The position numbers and the translations under genes are program-made. Shown piece after piece: positions 5,654 through 48,450 of a DNA stretch of 64,000 nt. Each line of letters begins with the position of its first letter. Position 1 is the first letter of the stretch. The DNA comes from Psychrobacter sp. P2G3 (GTDB taxonomy: Bacteria; Pseudomonadota; Gammaproteobacteria; Pseudomonadales; Moraxellaceae). The notes below the pieces were generated by a model that was not told the DNA's origin, searched no databases, and saw nothing but the letters and a program-made list of their open reading frames with translations. The DNA lies in NCBI RefSeq assembly GCF_001593285.1, contig NZ_CP012529.1, positions 248,001 through 312,000 on the forward strand, read 5' to 3'.

Positions 5654-5729
5654 TGGCAGGGGTAGCTGGACTCGAACCAACGGATGTCAGGATCAAAACC
5701 TGATGCCTTACCAACTTGGCTATACCCCT
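5654..5729 (-). tRNA. tRNA-Gln (anticodon TTG), copy nearer prs
   Basis: On the minus strand the 76-nt sequence folds as a cloverleaf. The acceptor stem is AGGGGTA/TACCCCT, the anticodon stem TCAGG/CCTGA encloses the loop TTTTGAT (anticodon TTG, reading CAA and CAG), and the T-arm contains GGTTCGAGTCC. A discriminator G and an encoded CCA end complete the gene. It is identical to the second copy 211 bp upstream. It lies about 95 bp before prs, a conserved association in gammaproteobacteria. Confidence 0.96.
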
Positions 5730-5940: not shown

Positions 5941-6016
5941 TGGCAGGGGTAGCTGGACTCGAACCAACGGATGTCAGGATCAAAACCTGATGCCTTACCA
6001 ACTTGGCTATACCCCT
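5941..6016 (-). tRNA. tRNA-Gln (anticodon TTG), promoter-proximal copy
   Basis: This is a 76-nt tRNA-Gln with the same sequence as the copy at 5654-5729, including the encoded CCA. It is preceded by a well-formed promoter at 6030-6057. The 211-bp spacer between the copies has no gene and no clear terminator, so both tRNAs and perhaps prs may be read from this promoter. Confidence 0.96.
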
Positions 6017-35701: not shown

Positions 35702-35840
35702 TATAGTGGGTTTACCTTAAAACCGATACAGTGCGACTGGGATGAATTTTTCGTAGCCTCTGTGATAGCAGCAAGCAAGGAAAATTTATACCAGTCGCAC
35801 GTGGCGATTAACGTATCGATTTTATTTCGAACCGACTATA
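35702..35840 (-). repeat. Dispersed hairpin repeat, copy A
   Basis: A 139-bp element with ends TATAGTGGGTT and AACCGACTATA (10 of 11 paired). Inside, GTGCGACTGG (35731) and CCAGTCGCAC (35791) pair perfectly and extend as a 20-bp stem with three mismatches. The loop contains the reverse complement of the core (CTTGCTTGCTG, then CAGAGGCTAC). It is the reverse orientation of copies B and C and ends 4 bp from the stop of the HI0933-family gene. The remainder of the gap 35525-35701 is AT-rich with no other feature. Confidence 0.85.
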
Positions 35841-35844
35841 CTAA

Positions 35845-37119
35845 TTAAACCACTTCACCGCAGACAAAGCCGCTCGCCCAAGCCCATTGGAAGTTATAGC
35901 CGCCAAGCCAGCCTGTGACATCGAGCACCTCACCAATAAAGTATAGCCCGTCTTGAAAGTTGCTTTGCATCGTTTTTGAAGACACCTCATCGGTTTTTAT
36001 GCCGCCGCGCGTGACCTCAGCCGTACGATAGCCTTCCGTACCAGAGGGCTTGAGTTGCCAACCATTGATAGTAGCCCCAAGCTCAATTAAACGCTCATCT
36101 TTAATATTGGCAAGCTCTTTATCTTTAATATCGTCCCATAGTGTCGTTTGTAGAGCCACAAGTAGCTTTTTAGGTAAAGCGTTATCCGTATAATCAGCCA
36201 AGACGGTACGGATGAGCTGTTTGGGGTGTGACTTTTTATGAGAGAGTAGGAGGGTGGTGATATCGGTATCAGGCAGCAAATTAATACTGATGTATTCGCC
36301 CGTCTGCCAATAATTGGACAGCTGGAGCATGGCAGGACCAGATAGACCGCGATGGGTAAATAGGAGCGGCAGCTTAAACGAGATGCGCTCGTTACTGGCA
36401 ATCACCGGCAGGCTAATGCCAGACAAAGCACGGATGAGCTCACCCGTCTTATCAGTGAAAGTAAAGGGAACAAGGCTGGCATCGGTGGACATAAGCTGAT
36501 GCCCAAACTGCTGCGCTAGCTCGTAGCCAAGACCACTCGCACCCATTGTTGGAATAGATAAGCCACCAGTCGCAACGACTAACGATTCACAGCTGTATTT
36601 GGTTTGCGAGGGTTTAACGTCATTGGCAATATCTTTTTTACTGAGTTTTTTGGTGGTCAATAACTCAAAGCGCGCGCTATTCTTGTTCGCATTAGCATCG
36701 TTAACATTGACTTTATCAATCTGCGTATTAATGCGTATCTGCACACCTACTGCGGCGCATTCATCAAGTAGCATGGTTAAGATATCTTGTGCTGAATCAT
36801 CGCAAAACAGCTGACCGTGCTCACGCTCATGATAAGCAATTTTGTGTTTCTCAACCATGCCAATGAACTCCCAGCTGGGATAACGGCTCAGAGCTGACTT
36901 ACAAAAATGCGGATTGGCACTGATAAAGTGTTCAGGCTCGACGAAGTAATTGGTAAAGTTACAGCGTCCACCACCCGACATCAGGATTTTCTTGCCGACT
37001 TTATTTGCATGATCGAGCACCAATACGCGACGGCCTCGACGACCAGCGGTGAGCGCGCAGTATAGCCCTGAGGCCCCTGCGCCAATAATGATGACATCGT
37101 AATGGGTGTTATTGTCCAT
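35845..37119 (-). CDS. HI0933-family NAD(P)/FAD-dependent oxidoreductase
   Basis: A 424-residue flavoprotein of the HI0933/YhiN family. It shows the dinucleotide fold YDVIIIGAGASGLYCALTAGRRG, the family motif KKILMSGGGRCNFTN near residue 47, a middle beta-rich insert domain, VVATGGLSIPTMGASGLGY, and the closing GGYNFQWAWASGFVCGE. Members bind FAD but no substrate is known. The frame is open to a TTG at 37155; the ATG at 37119 (MDNNTHYDV) is the standard start. The gene is bracketed by inverted copies of the hairpin repeat: copy A 4 bp after the stop and copy B 62 bp before the start. Confidence 0.92.
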   Translation of the reverse strand: MDNNTHYDVIIIGAGASGLYCALTAGRRGRRVLVLDHANKVGKKILMSGGGRCNFTNYFVEPEHFISANPHFCKSALSRYPSWEFIGMVEKHKIAYHEREHGQLFCDDSAQDILTMLLDECAAVGVQIRINTQIDKVNVNDANANKNSARFELLTTKKLSKKDIANDVKPSQTKYSCESLVVATGGLSIPTMGASGLGYELAQQFGHQLMSTDASLVPFTFTDKTGELIRALSGISLPVIASNERISFKLPLLFTHRGLSGPAMLQLSNYWQTGEYISINLLPDTDITTLLLSHKKSHPKQLIRTVLADYTDNALPKKLLVALQTTLWDDIKDKELANIKDERLIELGATINGWQLKPSGTEGYRTAEVTRGGIKTDEVSSKTMQSNFQDGLYFIGEVLDVTGWLGGYNFQWAWASGFVCGEVV

Positions 37120-37181
37120 GGCGGTTTTGGTCCATAAAGCGCTGCTTTTAAACAAACGTAAAGATAAGGTAGAAGCAATGA

Positions 37182-37327
37182 TATAGTCAGATCAATATAA
37201 AAAAGATACAGTGGTATTGGGACAAGTTTTTCTTGCTTGCTGTGCCTACACCGACAGAGGCTACAAAAAATTTGTCCCAATACCACGTCATACTATCGTG
37301 TATCCATTTTATTTAGTATCGACTATA
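37182..37327 (+). repeat. Dispersed hairpin repeat, copy B
   Basis: A 146-bp element with ends TATAGTC and GACTATA. GTGGTATTGGGACAA (37211) and TTGTCCCAATACCAC (37272) are a perfect 15-bp inverted repeat, extended by T/A pairs, around the core CTTGCTTGCTGTGCCTACAC and GACAGAGGCTAC. Outer GATACA/TGTATC arms also pair. It sits immediately upstream of the HI0933-family gene, in opposite orientation to copy A. Confidence 0.85.
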
Positions 37328-37760
37328 GGAATATGCTGATATAAATATCATTTAAAAAAATGTATTTGGTGTGGCTATTGTCCATATTTAACCTATGGTT
37401 ACAAGGGTTAAATGCTTATCAAATTTTTGCTCTGCAAAAGTAATAGAGCGTATAAATACATAAGTAAACAGCTGTACATTGGAATTGTTGTAATTAGTAG
37501 TTGGTGTCTTGCATCACTTGCCCTTATTTGTCAAACTAGAATCAAGGCGTCACTCATTATGGAAGATGATAGCCTGTTGTCTGCAACCACCGTCGTTACT
37601 GATTAGCTGCCGATTATCACTGTCTGATAGTAATGTTATCGCTTCAGTTTCAGTCAGTCTATTAGATAGTTTTTTCTTTTATTCTCGGTATTTTTTATTC
37701 TCAATATCTTTTATTTTCGATATTTTATGCAGACAATAATAATTAAAAAAGGAATATTTT
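37328..37760. other. Upstream region of acs, no gene accepted
   Basis: A 433-bp AT-rich spacer between repeat copy B and acs. A 64-codon frame at 37412-37606 has no ribosome site and was rejected. The acs ribosome site (AAGGAA) is at the right edge. No promoter could be placed with confidence. Confidence 0.4.
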
Positions 37761-39731
37761 ATGACTCAGAAATCTTTTCCTATTACGGCTGAATTTATCG
37801 CCGCTGCCAATACCACCGCCGAGCAGTACGCTCACGACTACAAACGATCTGTTGAATCACCTGAGGCCACTGATGCATTTTGGGCCGAGCGTGCCGAGCT
37901 GATTGATTGGATAAAAAAGCCGACTATCATTAGCAACGTCAGTTATGATTTGGACGACTTTCGTATTAAATGGTACGAGGATGGTGAGCTAAATATCTCA
38001 GTAAACTGCCTCGATCGACATCTTAAAACTAACCCCTATAAGCCTGCCATTATTTGGGAAGGGGACCATCCTTCTTTACACAAGATTATCTCCTTTAAAG
38101 AGTTGCACGCTGATGTTTGTCGCTTAGGTAATGCTATGCGCAAGCTTGGGGTCAAAAAAGGCGATCGCGTTACCTTATATATGCCAATGATACCTGAAGC
38201 GATGATAGCGATGCTGGCATGTACGCGTATCGGTGCGGTGCATTCGGTCGTGTTTGGTGGTTTTTCTGCTGAGAGCTTAGGTAACCGTATCGTTGATAGT
38301 CAATCCAAAATCGTGATTACGGCTGATGAAGGTCTGCGCGGTAATAAGCATACGCCCCTTAAAGTCAATGTCGATCGTGCGCTAGATATGGATGGCACTG
38401 ATAGCGTTGAAAAAGTCATTGTCGTACATCGTACAGGTAGTTCGATCCCAATGAGTGGTCGCCGTGATGTTTGGTATCACTCTTTAATCGCTGGCGAGCA
38501 AGAGCAGTGCGAGCCTGAAGTCATGAATGCCGAAGATCCATTATTTTTGTTATATACCTCTGGTTCGACCGGAAAGCCAAAAGGCGTACTGCATACAACT
38601 GGCGGTTATATCACTTATGCGCTATCAACCTTTCGCGATGTCTTCGATATCAAAGACGATGATGTCTATTGGTGTACAGCGGATGTTGGCTGGGTGACCG
38701 GTCATACTTATTCCACTTATGGGCCGCTTGCCAGTGGCACGACGACGGTAATGTTTGAGGGCGTGCCTGAATATCCAACATGGGCGCGGATTGGTCATAT
38801 TATCGATAAGCATAAAATTACGGTTTTATATACGGCACCGACTGCTATCCGCTCGATGATGAAAGAAGGCGATACCTTTGTCCGTGAGTCTAATCGCTCA
38901 AGTCTACGCTTGCTCGGTACCGTTGGAGAACCCATTAACCCTGAGGCGTGGGATTGGTATTATGATGTCGTTGGCGGTGGTCGTTGCCCAATCGTAGATA
39001 CATGGTGGCAGACTGAAACGGGTGGTATCTTGCTCGCCCCAATACCAGGTACGGTAGCGCTTAAACCGGGTGCCGCGATGAACCCTCTATATGGCATCAT
39101 ACCGCAAGTTATCGATACCGATGGCACCGCACTCGAAGGTCCCGCTGAGGGCAATCTCGCTATTAGTAATAGCTGGCCGGGACAGATGCGTACTATTTAT
39201 AATGACCATGAGCGCTTTTTGGAGACCTACTTTACTGAGTATCCGGGCTATTACTTTACTGGTGATGGGGTACAACGCGATGAAGATGGGCACTATTGGA
39301 TTACTGGTCGTGTCGATGATGTCCTCAATGTTTCAGGGCACCGTTTAGGTACTGCAGAAGTTGAAAGTGCAGTAGATGCGCATCCTTCTACTGTCGAAGC
39401 AGCCGTCGTTGGTATGCCCCACGAGATTCGCGGTGTGGGCATTGCAGCCTTTATTATTCTCAGTATGGGCGAGGTCGCCAGCGATCAGCTAAAAGCCGAG
39501 CTAAATCGTCATGTGCGCACTGAGATTGGCCCAATTGCTAACTTAGATGCTATCTATATCGTTGAGGCGTTACCAAAAACGCGTTCTGGTAAGATTATGC
39601 GTCGAATATTGCGTAACCTTGCTGCAGGGCAGTATGTCGGACTAGGCGATCTATCCACCCTTGCTGATAGTTCGGTTATTAATAAGATTATCGAAGTGGT
39701 CAAAGCTGAACGTGAGGCCAAGCGTTGCTAG
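37761..39731 (+). CDS. acs: Acetyl-CoA synthetase (AMP-forming)
   Basis: Acs activates acetate with ATP and CoA through acetyl-AMP, the high-affinity route for acetate use. The 656-residue protein has the acetate/propionate ligase N-terminal domain ([15 protein letters not shown]), the P-loop [16 protein letters not shown], the acyl-pocket region [20 protein letters not shown] whose Trp and Val choices favour acetate, the motif [11 protein letters not shown], and the C-terminal [11 protein letters not shown] with the lysine that is acetylated to switch the enzyme off. It complements pta-ackA at the other end of the window. It ends at a terminator at 39785. Confidence 0.96.
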
Positions 39732-39784
39732 CAAATAACCACTAGCGCCACTGTCTGCAATGGCTAACTATTAATCGTCACAGA

Positions 39785-39817
39785 AGCCATGCTATTTAGA
39801 ACAGCATGGCTTTTTAA
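39785..39817 (+). terminator. Terminator after acs
   Basis: AAGCCATGCT and AGCATGGCTT pair perfectly around a nine-base loop, followed by TTTTAAT. It is followed by a short direct repeat (AATATAAGTGCT twice, 39816-39850) of no obvious role. Confidence 0.85.
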
Positions 39818-39952
39818 TATAAGTGCTACTCATTAATATAAGTGCTGCTAAACAAAATAGAAATCATGCTTTTTGCTTAATGTTTTGCTCAACATTTTCG
39901 TTTAATAAGATTTTTAATTATTGCTCAATTTTTAATAAGGCCTACTGTTCTC

Positions 39953-41230
39953 ATGACTGACCATATTTTGCCAGCTACTGATAAGTTTACTGATAATAGC
40001 TCAAAGCAAACTAACCATGACAATCAGGCTACCTTGAATAATGGCCTGAACACCGATCTGAACACTGCGCCGAAAGTAGCCATCATTGGTGGTGGTTTGA
40101 CAGGTCTATTTACGGCGACATTGTTAGAACGCGCCTTTCTTAAGCAACAAACTAAACCTTCTGTTAATTCTTCAGCACTGCAAATTACTATCTTTGAAAA
40201 ATCACGTAGCGTTGGTCGCCTAGCTACGCGCTATCTCACCGATAGCAATACCAATAAAAACTGGCAATGGGCATTCGGGGCGCAGTTTTTTACGGCAAAA
40301 ACTTCCAGCTTTAAGCAATTTATCGCGCCTTGGCTAGATTCAGAATTACTGCAACCGTGGTGCGCTCAAGTGGTTAATTTGACGCCAACCAATGCCAATT
40401 CTCAAAATGCTCATTCACCTAATGTAGAGAGAAAAGAGCAATGGGACACCAATCACGCGCGTTATATTAGCACCCCTAAAATGACCAGTTGGGGTCGCGC
40501 ATTGGCTGATGATTTACAGCATACAACTATAAAATTTAAGACCCGTGTTGCTCCAATTAATAAAGCGCAAACGAATAGCGCACAAGATAATAAAGCTATA
40601 AAAACTGAGCTGTTTGATGAAACTGGCAGCAGTCTGGGCTGGTTTGATTGGGTTATTTGTACTGCGCCAAACGGTCAGGCAGTAGAGCTGATGGCAGACA
40701 GTGGCTTTACGAAGCAAGCCAAAATTATCGAACCAGAAATGCTGGCTTGCTATACGCTTATGTTAGGCTGGGATAACTTAGAGCAATTACCAAAAACGTT
40801 AAGTAATGACATTCAATCAGCATTGGATGTGGCTTATGTAAATGCCTCAATACTCGATAGAATATTTATCGAGCATCAAAAGCCTGCTCATGATGACCTA
40901 CTTCCAAGTGTCACTATTCACGCGCGCAACGACTGGTCCGAAGAGCACGTCGATGATGATATTGAAACGGTTAAAGCGCAATTGCTAGCAGCCGCACAGC
41001 AAGCACTAAATTGGCATGAGGGTTATGCACCCAGTCAAATAGATTGCCATCGTTGGCGTTATGCAGCGACAGTGATTGATGTGAAAAATAGAGGCAGCAG
41101 TGAGGCGTTAGGAATATTGATTGATACTCAACATCAATGGATCGTCAGTGGTGATTGGTGCGGGCAAGGCAATATCGAGAGCTGCTATCAGGTGGCAAAA
41201 GAGACGGTAAAAGTACTTTGCGCCTCCTAA
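39953..41230 (+). CDS. Renalase-like FAD-dependent oxidoreductase
   Basis: A 425-residue flavoprotein. After a 40-residue polar extension comes the FAD Rossmann motif VAIIGGGLTGLFTATLLE, then EKSRSVGRLATRY, where amine-oxidase-type flavin enzymes bind FAD, and QWAFGAQFFTAKTSSF as in bacterial renalases. The C-terminal VSGDWCGQGNIESCYQ closes the FAD site. Bacterial renalases oxidise dihydro-isomers of NAD(P)H formed by mis-reduction; whether this one does is inferred from family. The start follows an AAGG site. It is a single gene. Confidence 0.8.
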   Translation: MTDHILPATDKFTDNSSKQTNHDNQATLNNGLNTDLNTAPKVAIIGGGLTGLFTATLLERAFLKQQTKPSVNSSALQITIFEKSRSVGRLATRYLTDSNTNKNWQWAFGAQFFTAKTSSFKQFIAPWLDSELLQPWCAQVVNLTPTNANSQNAHSPNVERKEQWDTNHARYISTPKMTSWGRALADDLQHTTIKFKTRVAPINKAQTNSAQDNKAIKTELFDETGSSLGWFDWVICTAPNGQAVELMADSGFTKQAKIIEPEMLACYTLMLGWDNLEQLPKTLSNDIQSALDVAYVNASILDRIFIEHQKPAHDDLLPSVTIHARNDWSEEHVDDDIETVKAQLLAAAQQALNWHEGYAPSQIDCHRWRYAATVIDVKNRGSSEALGILIDTQHQWIVSGDWCGQGNIESCYQVAKETVKVLCAS

Positions 41231-41329
41231 AATGCAAATATTATTCTAATCACGTAGATAGTAAAATATCCAATGCACCCATTGTTAGAGTTTAAATGCG
41301 TTTTCTCTAAAAAGGGAGGGTAGTAAACC

Positions 41330-41755
41330 ATGTTTGGATTCGATTTAGATTTAGACTTAATGGGATACCATTTTTTCCAACTGAGTATTGCCTTTATATT
41401 ATCACTGCCGATTGCGCTTAATCGTGAGATGAAAGATAACGGCGCAGGGCTTAGAACCTTTCCATTGGTAACTATTGCTTCGTGTGCCTTCATGTTGGTG
41501 GGCATGGATATTTACGATGCCACTGGTGAAGCGAGAATCATGTACGCCATTATTACAGGCATGGGTTTTATCGGTGGTGGTGCCATTTTTAAAAATGAGA
41601 AAGGCTCAAAAGGGACAGCAACGGCAGCCAGTTTATGGAATACGGGTGCTATCGGTATTTCAGTTGCCTATGGTCGTTACGAGATAGCAATTATATTGTC
41701 TGTGGTTGGTTTTTTAATACTTCAATTTTCGGAGCCATTTAAAGTTAAAAAATAA
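41330..41755 (+). CDS. MgtC/SapB-family membrane protein
   Basis: A 141-residue inner-membrane protein with four membrane segments corresponding to the MgtC N-terminal domain. The conserved motif NREMKDNGAGLRTFPLV follows the first segment, and GMGFIGGGAIFKNEKGSKGTATAASLW matches the family core. The C-terminal cytoplasmic domain of Salmonella MgtC is absent, as in most SapB-type members. MgtC proteins affect survival at low Mg2+ and inhibit the F-ATPase in some pathogens; no such role is proven here. A GGGAGGG stretch lies upstream of the ATG. Confidence 0.88.
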   Translation: MFGFDLDLDLMGYHFFQLSIAFILSLPIALNREMKDNGAGLRTFPLVTIASCAFMLVGMDIYDATGEARIMYAIITGMGFIGGGAIFKNEKGSKGTATAASLWNTGAIGISVAYGRYEIAIILSVVGFLILQFSEPFKVKK

Positions 41756-41932
41756 TTGATAGTAGCCGAACATCAACGTTTGCTAACTCTATAAATATGG
41801 TGACCAACTCAATTAAAAAATAACTTTTTCAAGACTAATCAATACAAGGTTTTTTTAGTAATCGAATAGTTGCTTTTTATTCTTGAATAAGGCGATTTTG
41901 CTAAACAATGCCAATTGACTATCTTCTTTTTT

Positions 41933-41955
41933 TGACCTATGGTCAGTAATATAAT
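41933..41955 (+). promoter_or_regulatory. Promoter with operator palindrome before the amidase cassette
   Basis: A perfect TATAAT (41950-41955) is preceded by the palindrome TGACC-TAT-GGTCA (41933-41945), which fills the spacer where RNA polymerase binds. No good -35 box is at normal spacing (TTTTTT). The predicted transcript start is about 25 bp before the GTG start codon of the first gene. This suggests the cassette is under repressor or activator control. Confidence 0.5.
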
Positions 41956-41985
41956 CTCAAAAAAATCAATAACATGGAGTGGATT

Positions 41986-43356
41986 GTGAGCAAAATTACC
42001 AAAGATTCTGTTTCAGCGGTAGATATGGCAGCCCGCCTCGAAAAAGGCAGCCTTTGTCCGGTTGAGCTTATTGAAGAGACGTTTGAAAACATCCGAGCTT
42101 CTGATCCCGCTATTTTTACAGAATTGCTCGAAGAACGAGCGCTAAAAGAAGCCCATGCTTCTAGGCAACGCCGCCGTGAAGGCAATCCACTTAGTGCGTG
42201 GGATGGTATCCCTATCGCATGGAAAGACCTCTTTGATATAGAAGGTCGAGTAACCACCGCAGGATCTGTGGTACTTAAATCCAATGCGCCTGCGACTCGT
42301 GATGCCGATGTGGTTGCCAATGCCACTCGAGCTGGCCTTGTATCCATTGGCTGTCTTAATATGACTGAATTTGCTTATTCAGGCCTTGGTCTCAATCCAC
42401 ATTTTGGTACTCCTAAAAACCCACATGGTACGGGCCCAGATCGCATTCCTGGCGGCTCGTCTTCTGGTTGCGGTGTTGCTGTCTCCCGCGGACTAGTGCC
42501 ACTGGCCATCGGCAGTGATACTGGGGGTTCGATACGTATTCCAGCTGGGTTAAATGGCGTAGTCGGCCATAAAGGTTCTAGTACAGCGTTTCCAAAAGGG
42601 GGTACGTTTCCACTCTCACCGACATTGGATACCTTTGGTCCGCTTGCTGCTGACCTAAAAAGCTGCATCGGTGTGGCAGAAATTCTAAACGGCCGAGCGG
42701 TCGCAACGCCCAAGCCAACACCTATCAGTCAACTCAACTTCTTTATTCCTACCAATGTTGTTTTTAAAGGTGCGCAAGAGGCGGTGATTAACAATTTTGA
42801 AGCAGCTGTGCGTGCTCTAGAGATGGCTGGGGCGAAAGTCACTCGTGGAGTCTGTAGCGAGTTTGACGAAATAGGCACGCTTGCTCGTGAGCACGGCTAC
42901 TTAGTTGGTCCAGAAGCCTTAGATCTACACTGGGATCTGGTACATTCTGAGCGTGCGGCGCAGATGGATCCACGGGTTCTTGCTCGCATTCTTGATGCTG
43001 GAGATATGTCGGCTCGTGACTTGCTTGTTATTTTAAGAGCGCGCGCCAGATTGATTCAGCAAAATCGCCAACTGTTAGGTGATCAAATTGTGCTATTTCC
43101 GACCACGCCTATTACTGCCCCTGAACTTAAACCCCTTGAAGAAGACGATGATTTGTATCTGCGTACCAATAAATTGATGCTGCGCAATACCGCGCTTGGC
43201 AACTTTCTGGACTGGTGCGGCGTTGCCTTACCAAATGGCATAGATGAAAACCAGATGCCTACCAGTATTTTGCTATCGATGTCTGGTGGTCGAGAAGGCG
43301 ATCTATTAGCTGCGGCACTTTCTATCGAAAATTTATTAACTCAAAACTTATCATAA
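41986..43356 (+). CDS. Amidase-signature family enzyme
   Basis: A 456-residue hydrolase of the amidase-signature family. The Ser-cisSer-Lys triad is visible: Lys in IPIAWKDLFDIEG (near residue 80), the serine loop GGSSSGCGVAVSRG, and the nucleophile Ser in GSDTGGSIRIPAGLNG. Members hydrolyse amides, ureas or carbamates; the substrate here is unknown. The start is taken as the GTG at 41986 because GGAG lies seven bases before it; the ATG at 41974 has no ribosome site. It is the first gene of a four-gene cassette, 77 bp before the deacetylase. Confidence 0.88.
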   Translation: MSKITKDSVSAVDMAARLEKGSLCPVELIEETFENIRASDPAIFTELLEERALKEAHASRQRRREGNPLSAWDGIPIAWKDLFDIEGRVTTAGSVVLKSNAPATRDADVVANATRAGLVSIGCLNMTEFAYSGLGLNPHFGTPKNPHGTGPDRIPGGSSSGCGVAVSRGLVPLAIGSDTGGSIRIPAGLNGVVGHKGSSTAFPKGGTFPLSPTLDTFGPLAADLKSCIGVAEILNGRAVATPKPTPISQLNFFIPTNVVFKGAQEAVINNFEAAVRALEMAGAKVTRGVCSEFDEIGTLAREHGYLVGPEALDLHWDLVHSERAAQMDPRVLARILDAGDMSARDLLVILRARARLIQQNRQLLGDQIVLFPTTPITAPELKPLEEDDDLYLRTNKLMLRNTALGNFLDWCGVALPNGIDENQMPTSILLSMSGGREGDLLAAALSIENLLTQNLS

Positions 43357-43365
43357 CCATCTAAC

Positions 43366-43430
43366 GAAGGAGTAAAACAGAGCTAAAACCCCAAAGGAAT
43401 AAAACCAAACTAAAAATATCAAAGGAATGA
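43366..43430 (+). promoter_or_regulatory. Three tandem ribosome-binding-site-like repeats before the deacetylase gene
   Basis: GAAGGAGTAAAAC (43366), AAAGGAATAAAAC (43393) and AAAGGAATGAAAT (43421) are spaced 27 and 28 bp. Only the last is at working distance from the ATG at 43434. The repeat likely arose by duplication of the leader. Confidence 0.6.
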
Positions 43431-43433
43431 AAT

Positions 43434-44336
43434 ATGTCTAAAACTATCATATGTGGATTCGGCACGGACGTTGATTCAGTGGCCGGTCAAATCGGCTCGT
43501 ACGGCGGCGGCGAAAGCCCGTCTGACATTCAGCGCGGTGTCTGGGCCTCTGAAGTTGGCGTCCCACGCTTATTGCGTCTGTTTAAAAAATACGATCTACG
43601 CACCTCGTTCTTTATCCCCGGTCATAGCCTCGAGACATTCCCTGACATTGCCAAAATGATTGTCGATCATGGTCATGAAGTAGGGGCACATGGCTACTTA
43701 CATGAAAACCCCATTGCCATGACCCGCGCTCAAGAAGAAGCGGTCATGGAGAAATCAGTTGAGCTGATTACCAAGCTGACGGGTCAAAGCCCGCGTGGTT
43801 ACGTGGCACCGTGGTGGGAGATGTCAGCCGCGACCCCTGAGATCTTAGCAAAATACGATTTCAAATATGATCATAGCCAAGGCTACCGCGACTTCCAGCC
43901 GTTTTATGCTCGGGTGGGTGATAAATGGAATCTCATCGACTACTCTAAAACAGCAGAAGAATGGATGCATCCCATGACCCATGGCGACGAGATTGATTTG
44001 GTTGAAATCGCTGCCAACTGGTATATGGATGATTTGCCGCCGATGATGTTTATGAAAAACGTCCCCAACAGTCATGGTTTCGTCAATCCACGCGATATCG
44101 AAGAGATGTGGCGTGATCAGTTCGATTGGGTTTATCGCAATATGGACTATGCAGTATATCCGTTCACCATTCACCCTGATGTGTCAGGGCGTCCGCAAGT
44201 GCTGATGATGCTTGAACGTTTAATCGACTATATTAACAGTCATGAAGGTGTGGTTTGGATGCCGTTTGAAGATATTGCTGAAGATTTCCGCAAGCGCTTC
44301 CCGTTTGAAGGTGGTAAGCGTCCAGAAGTCATTTAA
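43434..44336 (+). CDS. NodB/PuuE-type polysaccharide deacetylase family protein
   Basis: A 300-residue metal-dependent hydrolase of the NodB family, closest in pattern to PuuE allantoinases and HpPgdA. Metal and catalytic residues visible are Asp12 and Asp14 in GTDVDS, the His86/His90 pair in HGYLHENP, and [12 protein letters not shown] after residue 119. The C-terminal [13 protein letters not shown] carries the second catalytic His. Members act on cyclic ureides or N-acyl groups. Beside an amidase, a nitrogen compound is likelier than a polysaccharide; that is inference. Unlike exported deacetylases it has no signal peptide, so it works in the cytoplasm. Confidence 0.85.
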
Positions 44337-44421
44337 AAGCTCTTGAAAATAGCGGTGTTTAACATTGGCTTTGGCGTCTTTAGCAGTATTGTCGCTAAAG
44401 TCAGTAATAAGGAGAAGAATC

Positions 44422-44709
44422 ATGTGTAATGCATGTGGCAACCCAGCAGCTCCAGGGCATTGGACGGAAGCGGGCGCACAAAAGGGTGGTATCCGCCTCA
44501 GAGCAATGTTTCACCGAATATCGATATTAAAGCGAGTACTAAAACCTTATGGGTTCTCAGTTTATGCTGATGGGGTGATCCCGCAGATACAGCTGATATG
44601 TCCAGGTGGGGCCCGCGTCATGGTCAACAACTTAACCGAGCTGTGGGCTGAAGTAGAACGCCGTCAAGGTTTTGCAATCGACCCCTTAACAACGCATGCA
44701 GTGGCTTGA
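44422..44709 (+). CDS. Small CxxC protein of the amidase cassette
   Basis: A 95-residue protein beginning MCNACGNPAAPGHWTEAGA, with an N-terminal CxxC that could hold zinc or another metal, a basic middle (LRAMFHRISILKRVLKPYG) and a third Cys in IQLICPGG. No named family is recognised. A strong AAGGAGAAG site precedes the ATG; the longer frame from 44365 has none. It overlaps the next gene's open frame and lies 12 bp or less from its start, so the two are coupled. A metal-handling partner for the following GTPase is the obvious guess. Confidence 0.75.
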   Translation: MCNACGNPAAPGHWTEAGAQKGGIRLRAMFHRISILKRVLKPYGFSVYADGVIPQIQLICPGGARVMVNNLTELWAEVERRQGFAIDPLTTHAVA

Positions 44710-44714
44710 GTTTA

Positions 44715-45683
44715 ATGCAAATATTTCAAGACAACCGTCTCGATATCGTTCTACTAAGTGGCTATCTGGGTTCAGGTAAGACCACATGGCTGCGTCATGC
44801 GCTTTTTACTAAGACGTTTGGTCGTGCGCAAGTCTTCACCCAAGAAGCGGCAGAACAACCTGTTGACGACCTGCTGTTGGGTGAGGCGATGAGTGTCAAA
44901 GTGCTGACCGGAACCGCGGGCACCCCAAAAGGCAAAGAAGAATTAATATCAGCACTACTTGCGGTTGCCGAGTCTCGAACAAACGGACGATCAATCGGTT
45001 TGACTACTGCTCAGCCAGACACGCTTATAATAGAAACCAGTGGCTTAGCTGATCCCGAAGAAATTATAGTCGCTATCAAAGAACATCCTATTCTGGTGTA
45101 CCATTTTGCGCTCAAAGAAATCATCATTATGGCTGATGCGCTACATTTCCACGTGGCACTAAAGACTGACGCTTTATGTCGTCAGCAAATCTTGTCGGCT
45201 GATCGCGTTGTGATTGCAAAATCAGAGGAAGTATCCGAGCAGTCCTTATCGAACCTCGTTTCAACCATCAGCAAAATCAATCCAGCCGCACCAATTTCAT
45301 TATCCGCATTCGGTGTCGAAAGCTCTGTTCCGCAACTCCCTCCACCTACTGAAATCTACGAATCGACTCTCGTTAATATGGGAACACCAACGACTGTGGT
45401 TTCGCTGCCGATTCCCAAAGAAGTAGACTGGGTCGAATTTACCGTTTGGCTATCGGCGTTGTTGCACGCTCGGGGTGATACGATTCTACGAGTCAAAGGC
45501 GTTTTACAGACAGACGAAGGTGCGCTATTACTACAATCTGTACGTAAGGTCATGCAACAGCCGGAGATTCTGCCGCCTGAGAAAGGCGACTCTAGGCTTG
45601 GAGAAATTGTGTTTATAGGGGAGGGTATGAATCAGGAGGCTTTGCTCATGTCTTTATTTTCCTTTCTTGGAAAAGAAAGTTAG
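44715..45683 (+). CDS. COG0523/CobW-like GTPase lacking the CxCC motif
   Basis: A 322-residue G3E-type P-loop GTPase of the CobW/COG0523 metallochaperone family. Walker A is GYLGSGKTT (residues 16-24) and the family Walker B is ETSGLADPEEI. The base-recognition region reads VIAKSEEV rather than the usual NKxD. Between Walker A and B, where COG0523 proteins have a CxCC metal site, there is no cysteine at all. A C-terminal CobW_C-like domain (from about residue 235) is present but divergent. The ATG at 44715 is used; a TTG at 44706 overlaps the previous stop. It probably supplies metal or GTP-driven assembly to the deacetylase or amidase, which is inference. Confidence 0.8.
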   Translation: MQIFQDNRLDIVLLSGYLGSGKTTWLRHALFTKTFGRAQVFTQEAAEQPVDDLLLGEAMSVKVLTGTAGTPKGKEELISALLAVAESRTNGRSIGLTTAQPDTLIIETSGLADPEEIIVAIKEHPILVYHFALKEIIIMADALHFHVALKTDALCRQQILSADRVVIAKSEEVSEQSLSNLVSTISKINPAAPISLSAFGVESSVPQLPPPTEIYESTLVNMGTPTTVVSLPIPKEVDWVEFTVWLSALLHARGDTILRVKGVLQTDEGALLLQSVRKVMQQPEILPPEKGDSRLGEIVFIGEGMNQEALLMSLFSFLGKES

Positions 45684-45778
45684 AGGCAGCTTATAGATTG
45701 ATATAAACTTTGAAAAATAACTGCTAGATTGACAAGAAAATTATCATGCTATGATATCAGCTAACAAAATTTTAGGAC

Positions 45779-45807
45779 AAAAAAAGACCCACAGAGGAAA
45801 CTGTGGG
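45779..45807 (-). terminator. Orphan minus-strand terminator in the gap before pgsA
   Basis: CCCACAG and CTGTGGG form a perfect stem around a six-base loop, and on the minus strand TCTTTTTTT follows. Both flanking genes are on the plus strand, so this terminator has no known gene. On the plus strand the loop reads AGGAAA, like a CsrA/RsmA site. The rest of the gap 45684-46193 is AT-rich with only a 7-codon minus-strand frame near 45873-45893. Confidence 0.6.
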
Positions 45808-46193
45808 CTGAGGAAAACTGGCGATGTAGATAGGCTACAGATACAGTCTTTGTTTATTATTGTTATTAGAACTTTGGTACAGCTTTCATTTATAAACCTG
45901 AGTGTACAACTGTTTTCGTAATATATTCATAATAGCGGAAGCTAAGTGTTTTTTGTTACTCCAGTTACATGACATTACGTTTAAGAGTGTTTTGATACAA
46001 TGTCATACTTTGAAACAGTTTTATATCATGATGAACATGCTTAGAATTTTCTATTCAGAATAATTTCGAGTCATTTGAACAATAATTAGATAATTAGTTA
46101 GTATTTATTAACTTGCAGAAGATGGCATGACGAGAAGGGCGAAAAATGCTAAGCTAGCAACCATTCTTATGTCTATATCAAACTAGGCTTGCC

Positions 46194-46874
46194 ATGACCG
46201 AAAGCACACAACTGCATACGCAAAAACCGCTACAGCCGCAAAATAATAAAAGTATTTTTAATTTACCCAATAATCTTACTATTGCGCGTATTTTGATGAT
46301 TCCATTATTTGTAGCGATTGCCTATTGGCCCCCAGCCATGGGTATTGGCATGCCTGCGATTTCAAATAACGTCATCGCACAGGTAGGGATGAGTGAGTTC
46401 AGCGATAGCTTATTGCGACATTTGCTATTGACGGCCGTCTTTATTATTGCTGCTATTACCGATTGGCTTGATGGCTATTTTGCCCGTAAGCTCAACGTAA
46501 TGTCAGCATTTGGGCGTTTTTTAGATCCCGTCGCTGATAAGCTGATGGTCGCAGCAGCACTTATTATCTTAGTGCAATGGCATCCCAATATTATTATGGC
46601 AATAGCAGCAATTGTGATTATCTCGCGTGAGATTGCAGTATCAGCATTACGTGAATGGATGGCAGAGCTGGGCAAAAGCACCAGTGTGGCAGTATCCTAC
46701 GTTGGCAAGCTCAAAACAACCTTTCAGATGATAGCTATTACGGTGCTCTTATTAAACTGGGAATCACTTGAGCTTATTGGTTATGGTCTGATGGTCGCAG
46801 CGGTGATTTTAACCTTATGGTCAATGTTCATTTATCTAAAGGCAGCATGGCCTTATCTTAAACAGAGCGGTTAA
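46194..46874 (+). CDS. pgsA: CDP-diacylglycerol-glycerol-3-phosphate 3-phosphatidyltransferase
   Basis: PgsA makes phosphatidylglycerol phosphate from CDP-diacylglycerol and glycerol-3-phosphate at the inner membrane, the committed step to phosphatidylglycerol and cardiolipin. The 226-residue protein has the CDP-alcohol phosphotransferase signature in full, DG-x2-AR-x8-G-x3-D-x3-D, as DGYFARKLNVMSAFGRFLD followed by PVADK. The N-terminal NLPNNLTIARILMIPLF is diagnostic of PgsA. About 20 polar residues precede it and an insertion lies in the first periplasmic loop, making it longer than E. coli PgsA. An AGG site precedes the ATG. It is monocistronic. Confidence 0.95.
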   Translation: MTESTQLHTQKPLQPQNNKSIFNLPNNLTIARILMIPLFVAIAYWPPAMGIGMPAISNNVIAQVGMSEFSDSLLRHLLLTAVFIIAAITDWLDGYFARKLNVMSAFGRFLDPVADKLMVAAALIILVQWHPNIIMAIAAIVIISREIAVSALREWMAELGKSTSVAVSYVGKLKTTFQMIAITVLLLNWESLELIGYGLMVAAVILTLWSMFIYLKAAWPYLKQSG

Positions 46875-46926
46875 ATTCGCGGTTAAACCCATAGTATTGC
46901 TACTTTTCGAATAAAACTTAGACAAA

Positions 46927-46964
46927 CAAAAACGCCAGTCGCATCTAGCCACTGGCGTTTTTTT
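46927..46964. terminator. Terminator between pgsA and the convergent stress gene
   Basis: AAAAACGCCAGT and ACTGGCGTTTTT pair perfectly with extra pairs inside and a T run after; A and T tails allow both directions. Confidence 0.88.
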
Positions 46965-46990
46965 ATTTATCACACTTAACTGTTAAGACA

Positions 46991-47485
46991 TTACAGCTCT
47001 ATCGAAAAATTCTCACCTAAGCTTTTCTCAATAGCGGTATCTGTTACCGCAGCGGCTGTCATTTTAAAGGCACTAGCAATGGCATTACCGTTAGCCCAGT
47101 ATTCAGCACCATGAGGGACGACTTTAATCAGCTGAACTTTAGGATCTTCTTTGCCTTGTTCAAAATAGGCGTTGTACAGCACTGACCACAGCTCATCAAG
47201 TTTTTCTTTATCCTCTACCAACTCAGCTTTACCAGTGATAGATAAATAGTTTTTGTCATCTTGACTGACATAAGCCAGGTTCACTTCTGGATTCTTCTTA
47301 ATATTATCGACTGTCTCAGAAGGACTATGACCGATAAACCAAATCTCTTTAGCACCGATGCTAGTTTCGGTGGTATTCATCGGGCAAGAATGTAGATGGT
47401 CCTCATGAGTACGAGTAGTCATCATTGTATATTTAATATCGTTTACCATCGCTTGGAGTTTATCCATCTGCTCTTGTTTACTCAT
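46991..47485 (-). CDS. Pyridoxamine 5'-phosphate oxidase-like stress protein, paralogue 1
   Basis: A 164-residue split-barrel flavin-binding protein of the general-stress-protein-26 type. The pattern MTTRTHEDHLHSCPMNT, KEIWFIGHSPSETVDNIKKNP, VNLAYVSQDDKNYLSITGKAEL and the late WANGN match the family. Members bind FMN or FAD and have a protective or unknown role. About half the residues are shared with the 164-residue gene at 47956, and both end in the same pattern (GENFSIEL, GEQFSVSL), so this is a tandem duplication. The ATG has an AAGGATAA site. Its upstream region carries hairpin repeat copy C. Confidence 0.88.
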   Translation of the reverse strand: MSKQEQMDKLQAMVNDIKYTMMTTRTHEDHLHSCPMNTTETSIGAKEIWFIGHSPSETVDNIKKNPEVNLAYVSQDDKNYLSITGKAELVEDKEKLDELWSVLYNAYFEQGKEDPKVQLIKVVPHGAEYWANGNAIASAFKMTAAAVTDTAIEKSLGENFSIEL

Positions 47486-47562
47486 AATAGTTATCCTTTA
47501 CTATTTAAAATTTCGGAGTTTAAAAGTCATTAAAAAAGCTACTTCAACATAAATCAAAACGT

Positions 47563-47707
47563 TATAGTCAGTCCTAAATAAAATAAATACAAATATTACA
47601 ACTCGCTACTGGTATAAATTTTCCTTGCTTGCTGTGCCTGCGCAGACAGAGGCTGCACAAAATTTATCCTAGTAGCACTGTGCTTATTCTATAGTGAATC
47701 AACTATA
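47563..47707 (+). repeat. Dispersed hairpin repeat, copy C
   Basis: A 145-bp element with ends TATAGTC and AACTATA. GCTACTGGTATAAATTTT (47605) pairs with AAAATTTATCCTAGTAGC (47659), 16 of 18 positions, around the core CTTGCTTGCTGTGCCTGCGC and GACAGAGGCTGC. It has the same orientation as copy B. It lies upstream of the first stress-protein paralogue and is absent from the matching place upstream of the second. Confidence 0.85.
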
Positions 47708-47955: not shown

Positions 47956-48450
47956 CTACAAAGATACTGAGAACTGCTCGCCGATATTTTCAGCAGTTTT
48001 GCCGTCTTGTAAGGCAGCAGCAGCCATTTTAAACATATTGACAGTGGAACTACCGCTTAACCAGCACTCTACACCATGTGGTACGACTTTGATTAACTGC
48101 ACGTTCTCATCTTCTTTACCATGCTCAAAGAATGCATTGTAAACTGGTGACCATAGCTCATCTAATTTGTCTTTATCGGTTGGCAACTCTGCATTGGCAC
48201 TGATAGAGACATAATCTTTTTCGTCTTGGGAAGCATAAGACAGACCAATTTTCGGGTTATCTTGAATATCTTTTACCACGTCCGATTTTTTATCACCGAT
48301 GAACCAAATCTCTTTACCACCGATGCTTGCCTCGCTAGTCGTCATTGGCCAAGCATGAATATCACCTTTGCTATTCACGGTGCTCATCATGGCAAATTTT
48401 ACGTCTTTGATCACATCTTGAATCTTGTCGATATGTTCTTGCTTACTCAT
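47956..48450 (-). CDS. Pyridoxamine 5'-phosphate oxidase-like stress protein, paralogue 2
   Basis: A 164-residue split-barrel protein of the same family and length as the gene at 46991, with MMSTVNSKGDIHAWPMTTSE, KEIWFIGDKKSDVVKDIQDNP and the shared IKVVPHG block. It keeps the family tryptophan (HAWPM) where paralogue 1 has HSCPM, so it is probably the less altered copy. The ATG has an AAGGATAT site. It ends at its own terminator and is divergent from purL. Flavin binding is expected from the family; the role is unknown. Confidence 0.88.
   Translation of the reverse strand: MSKQEHIDKIQDVIKDVKFAMMSTVNSKGDIHAWPMTTSEASIGGKEIWFIGDKKSDVVKDIQDNPKIGLSYASQDEKDYVSISANAELPTDKDKLDELWSPVYNAFFEHGKEDENVQLIKVVPHGVECWLSGSSTVNMFKMAAAALQDGKTAENIGEQFSVSL

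What the first reader, a model, noticed from the sequence alone, without database searches (positions are those of the whole stretch)
35702..47707. Three-copy repeat whose stem covaries between copies
The copies at 35702-35840, 37182-37327 and 47563-47707 share ends (TATAGTC... and ...ACTATA) and the core CTTGCTTGCTGTGCC...CAGAGGCT. The flanking stem differs in sequence but stays paired. Copy A pairs CGAC with GTCG where copy B pairs GTAT with ATAC, and copy C pairs GCTACT with AGTAGC. Compensating changes mean the pairing itself is selected or rebuilt, pointing to a structured RNA or a DNA hairpin recognised by a protein. Each end has TA outside TAGT..., as in TA-targeting MITEs.
Basis: seen in the sequence. 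Interest (0 to 1): 0.75.

Follow-up and report, generated by a model that had tools for sequence, protein, structure and literature searches.

The report
Mobile DNA repeat with flipping core
The three repeats are copies of a small mobile DNA element scattered through this bacterium's genome; its two arms stay matched while its central block sometimes turns around in place, so the matching stems do not by themselves prove a working RNA.

Summary
Copies A (minus strand), B and C belong to a ~145-bp family with 77 places in this genome and matches in 58 of 60 genomes sampled from the genus. All 120 loci fetched by its core (a capped list) are titled Psychrobacter. Stem covariation is real: 75 cells changed on both sides against 19.8 in shuffles.

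It is best read as a non-autonomous IS630-type element (a MITE): TA insertion, ends partly like those of Psychrobacter IS630 elements, 318 copies of one end in another genome.

New point: the central block inverts relative to the outer arms. Of 312 distinct copies, 13 are clearly flipped, 279 not, 20 unclear. At one orthologous site two species carry exact reverse complements of a 60-bp inner segment. B is flipped; A and C are not.

RNA is not favoured: G·T mismatches do not exceed A·C (32 against 42); no strand bias against genes (11 to 11). I favour rare DNA template switching between arms. Against it: most recent changes are one-sided. Transcription and transposition were not tested; the core's role is unknown.

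The parts
35702..35840 (-). copy A, whole element (139 bp), core unflipped
35702..35729 (+). A, outer end (frame right)
35731..35740 (+). A, inner stem arm
35755..35779 (-). A, core (shortened, 25 bp)
35791..35800 (+). A, inner stem arm
35801..35812 (.). A, unpaired spacer
35813..35840 (-). A, outer end (frame left)
37182..37327 (+). copy B, whole element (146 bp); core flipped relative to the outer arms
   Evidence: u 77, f 128
37182..37209 (+). B, outer end (frame right)
37211..37220 (+). B, inner stem arm
37232..37262 (+). B, core (31 bp)
37277..37286 (+). B, inner stem arm
37287..37299 (.). B, unpaired spacer, on the other side of the core than in A and C
37300..37327 (-). B, outer end (frame left)
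47563..47707 (+). copy C, whole element (145 bp), core unflipped
47563..47590 (+). C, outer end (frame left)
47591..47604 (.). C, spacer
47605..47612 (+). C, inner stem arm
47624..47654 (+). C, core (31 bp)
47669..47676 (+). C, inner stem arm (one mismatch)
47680..47707 (-). C, outer end (frame right)

Best explanation
A Psychrobacter family of ~145-bp non-autonomous IS630-type elements (MITEs): outer ends TATAGT...ACTATA, an unpaired spacer (12-14 nt in A, B and C) on one side, an inner inverted repeat, and a core of about 31 bp. Shown from sequence: dispersed copies, TA insertion, ends partly like IS630 ends, covarying inner stems, and core inversion, once at an orthologous site. Inferred: an IS630 transposase moves them in trans; during replication the inner inverted repeat now and then lets the polymerase switch template, which copies one arm onto the other (keeping the stem matched) or inverts the segment between the arms. 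That the core serves mobilisation or binds a host protein is a guess.
For: 77 places in this genome. TA insertion: one element inside another with TA on both sides (L142, read by eye) and an orthologous locus with the element at two different TA sites in two genomes (L145/L153). Recent spread: in G114, 41 places listed at 96-100% identity (40 of 381 candidates scored) and 318 places for the left end with up to 3 mismatches, control 0. Ends: best match of the six A, B, C ends to 12 chosen IS630 ends 16-19 of 25 positions beyond TATAGTC, shuffle p from 0 of 20000 to 0.006. Own IS: larger ORF above cut-off for NF033545. Inversion: 13 of 312, in arms of three subfamilies, exact 60-bp inversion at the L006/L402 site, that exact segment found nowhere else in the fetched loci. 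Flipped copies have longer perfect arms (median 10 against 8; p 0.025; own genome alone p 0.062). L152/L314, one insertion in two genomes, differ in the element only by one compensated pair. The same two footprints, arm matching and spacer inversion, are described for template switching (PMC8604942, PMC8794818; abstract and passages).
Against: Among close copies, 262 differences hold only 3 compensated pairs (0.75 expected, up to 5 in 2000 draws) and 201 one-sided changes at paired positions: matching is rare per change. 0 of 19 young G114 copies read had a flipped core (by eye), so inversion is slow. End similarity is partial, the 12 IS ends were picked by eye, p values are uncorrected, and two end types are weak (G114 right 0.011, glacincola right 0.068). 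The outer-arm tree is poorly resolved. B and C site alignments with relatives were too diverged to show a clean empty junction.
Confidence: 0.6

Rival explanations
1. The hairpin is a functional structured RNA (for example an mRNA processing site, as reported for Correia elements), and selection on the RNA keeps the stem paired.
For: Strong covariation; A and B fold far better than shuffles as RNA; elements at some orthologous sites are more conserved than their flanks (94-100% against 64-94% for L307/L371).
Against: G·T 32 against A·C 42, p 0.30 (30 against 44 when read on the frame strand); no strand bias in 22 tandem settings; a core that inverts; no Rfam family. An RNA made from either strand would escape the first two tests.
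Confidence: 0.12
2. Pairing is kept by selection on the DNA itself: only elements whose inner arms pair can form the hairpin or cruciform needed to move, and template switching adds little.
For: No strand signal; pairing kept across subfamilies although single changes break it often.
Against: Does not by itself explain the exact core inversion.
Confidence: 0.15
3. Flipped cores and matched arms come from gene conversion or recombination between different copies paired in inverted register.
For: Many copies share similar arms and cores.
Against: The exact 60-bp segment inverted in L402 was found only at that site in the fetched loci; only parts of each genome were fetched.
Confidence: 0.12
4. 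A site-specific recombinase inverts the core.
For: Inversion recurs; the A+T-rich arm next to the core is fairly conserved.
Against: Flips occur with different stem sequences; no recombinase was looked for.
Confidence: 0.04

Closest known systems
Correia repeat enclosed elements (CREE/NEMIS) of Neisseria
   Same: Size, TA at the termini, ends that begin TATAGTGG, over 100 copies, intergenic, hairpin; whole-element inversion is reported (title cited in PMC9778887; statement in PMC10969869; passages seen). One Correia end variant resembles the right end of copy A (uncorrected p 0.0002).
   Different: Two of the four Correia variants show no significant similarity; said to be unique to Neisseria (PMC5039591, passage). 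Core sequences were not compared. Here only the core turns.
RUP of Streptococcus pneumoniae with IS630-Spn1
   Same: A ~107-bp element, TA target, ends like those of a resident IS630 element (PMC2229807, PMC3049150; passages).
   Different: Other sequence; core inversion is not mentioned in the passages seen.
Template switching between inverted-repeat arms
   Same: Matches the arms and inverts the spacer; in yeast genes spacer inversion was seen only with arms over 9 bp (PMC8604942, passages); loop inversions and multiple compensatory changes in RNA genes (PMC8794818, passages).
   Different: There the inverted spacers are a few bases; here the inner segment is 60 bp at L402, within a dispersed mobile family.

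Membership tests
bacterial MITE | Short, dispersed, many copies | tested here: met
   A, B, C are 139-146 bp; 77 places
bacterial MITE | Terminal inverted repeats and target-site duplication | tested here: met
   TATAGT/ACTATA ends; TA at a nested insertion and at an orthologous locus, read by eye
bacterial MITE | Recent movement | tested here: met
IS630-mobilised element | Ends matching an IS630 element | tested here: inconclusive
   Partial: 16-19 of 25 for the A, B, C ends; IS ends picked by eye; G114 and G033 lack an intact match
IS630-mobilised element | Moved in trans by the transposase | not testable with these tools
   needs an assay
Correia element | 26-bp Correia repeat at the ends | tested here: inconclusive
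   two of four variants similar, two not
Correia element | Correia core region | not tested
   no Correia core was fetched
structured RNA | Covarying stem | tested here: met
structured RNA | G·U favoured over A·C on one strand | tested here: not met
   32 against 42
structured RNA | Described Rfam family | tested here: not met
   window at gathering threshold: two tRNAs only; copy C at E up to 1: one match at 0.44, 17.4 bits against a cut-off of 100
template switching at inverted repeats | Spacer inversion with arms kept | tested here: met
template switching at inverted repeats | Simultaneous changes on both arms | tested here: inconclusive
   3 compensated pairs against 0.75 expected; L152/L314

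The most novel reading that the evidence does not exclude
The core is a reversible DNA switch: a module carried by elements with several kinds of IS630-like ends, held between arms that are kept matched, and turned around often enough to change what it does to neighbouring genes.
Probability: 0.12. Interest if true: 0.75.

Novelty: new variant of a known kind. Interest (0 to 1): 0.5.

Why it matters
Compensatory changes are commonly taken as strong evidence of a functional RNA. Here a mobile family shows strong covariation together with in-place inversion of its core and no strand-specific RNA signal, so part of such covariation may come from how DNA is copied. With 77 places in one genome and 318 copies of one end in another, it is a natural test bed. 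No listed title described the family in the searches made (open-licence papers, listings seen, hits not opened except PMC10969869).

Tried and rejected
Rfam: nothing. Plasmids: 4 records with partial matches, 3 Psychrobacter (two of them versions of one accession) and 1 Acinetobacter variabilis; phages: no match. Correia membership: partial end similarity only. Simultaneous double changes: weak. The outer-arm tree used 164 of 292 classified rows and 81 columns and is poorly resolved. A first frame test gave 10 of 73 own and 4 of 60 other copies flipped, several by small margins; the stricter replaced it, with 20 copies left unclear and copies scoring under 70 dropped uncounted. Of the 15 pairs I did not use L005/L325, L074/L338, L105/L334, L117/L294, L160/L310 and L273/L309, which read as different insertions. 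That the core is more conserved than the outer arms is biased, since copies were found by their core. B and C junctions against relatives were uninformative.

Full report
Observation. The three copies exist as described, with corrections: A is on the minus strand and has a shortened core; C has a mismatch and folds weakly. Genome-wide there are 77 places at E <= 1e-9. One search listed 137 rows at E <= 0.1, many of them the same palindromes read on the other strand.

Covariation. On the 77 own copies all 8 pairs of the inner helix 1 change on both sides in some copy; 75 both-side cells against 19.8 in shuffles and 7 to 23 in slid registers. The alignment was made with the model and the rows are related, so these counts lean upward.

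Anatomy. Read by outer arms and spacer, the core stands in either direction: in B, L002 and L003 it is turned relative to L019-like arms, in L004 relative to A-like arms, in L005 and L008 relative to C-like arms. Of 312 distinct copies from 426 sequences held, 279 are unflipped, 13 flipped and 20 unclear. On an outer-arm tree of 164 of the 292 classified copies the 13 flips need 13 changes, as for shuffled labels (12.7), at least 5 of them forced by starred branches; the tree is poorly resolved.

Direct case. L006 (this genome), L338 (Psychrobacter sp. APC 3426) and L402 (an uncultured Psychrobacter) carry the same insertion; L006 and L402 align over about 2.5 kb at 82%. The 60-bp inner segment of L402 is the exact reverse complement of that of L006; L338 is like L006 with one substitution; turning the segment raises identity from 151 to 179 of 183. 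In the four other sets that I read as one insertion (L087/L335, L152/L314, L307/L357/L371, L324/L424) no inversion is seen; L424 was unclear by score but reads like L324.

Mobility. One element sits inside another with TA on both sides (L142). At one locus two related genomes have the element at two different TA sites. In G114, 41 places were listed at 96-100% identity, and 318 places match the left end with up to 3 mismatches, control 0. A and B were not found beside the orthologous gene in 24 same-genus loci, apart from one model match about 1.4 kb from the gene in L228. The family scan gave 63 of 199 genomes in 2 of 16 genera, with at most 23 candidates scored per genome.

Partner. 48 of 60 genomes of the genus match PF13358. 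This genome has three elements of 918 bp with the same ends and ORF lengths; the larger ORF matches NF033545, the smaller nothing. The six ends of A, B and C match the best of 12 hand-picked IS630 ends at 16-19 of 25 positions; two other end types are weaker.

RNA or DNA. G·T 32 and A·C 42 among non-Watson-Crick cells of helices 1 and 2, each about half to three fifths of the shuffled 63 and 70, with 41 other mismatches. Of 35 own copies with long flanks (of 77) none lies in an ORF of 90 aa or more kept by a simple caller; 22 lie in tandem gene pairs with 11 cores on each strand, 7 convergent, 5 divergent, 1 at an edge.

Mechanism. Template switching between inverted-repeat arms is reported to match arms and invert spacers (PMC8604942: abstract, introduction, passages) and to create and maintain hairpins (PMC8794818: abstract, passages). 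Flipped copies have longer perfect arms, and the L152/L314 difference is one compensated pair. But among close copies 201 of 262 differences are one-sided at paired positions and only 3 pairs are compensated, and 0 of 19 young G114 copies read are flipped. So switching, if it is the cause, is rare, and selection for pairing at the DNA level may contribute. This step is inference.

Verdict. A known kind of element (a MITE) with an unusual feature seen directly in sequence, an invertible core between covarying arms, and a caution against reading covariation alone as RNA function. The role of the core is unexplained.

Noticed in passing
window 46991-47485 and 47956-48450: Copy C lies between two tandem genes of the same family (Pyrid_ox_like, PF16242).
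   Followed up: no
window 5654-5729 and 5941-6016: Two tRNA-Gln genes with the same anticodon, about 210 bases apart, with equal Rfam scores.
   Followed up: no
L278-L296 (G114): A burst of near-identical copies in a 2.65-Mb genome, 318 matches to one end, without an intact IS630 match.
   Followed up: partly
L307, L357, L371; L006, L338, L402: At some orthologous sites the element is more conserved than its flanks; in L006 it lies 5' of an ORF that reads to me like panB (not searched).
   Followed up: partly
L118 and L203: Some elements have ends of the GTTAT type, like the resident IS630 elements, with the same core, so different IS-like ends may share one core.
   Followed up: partly
H2, NZ_CP078030.1:16155-16238: A partial copy on an Acinetobacter variabilis plasmid record.
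   Followed up: no
L120 (G000:C1:2585590-2586190): A copy whose core has extra CTTG units.
   Followed up: no
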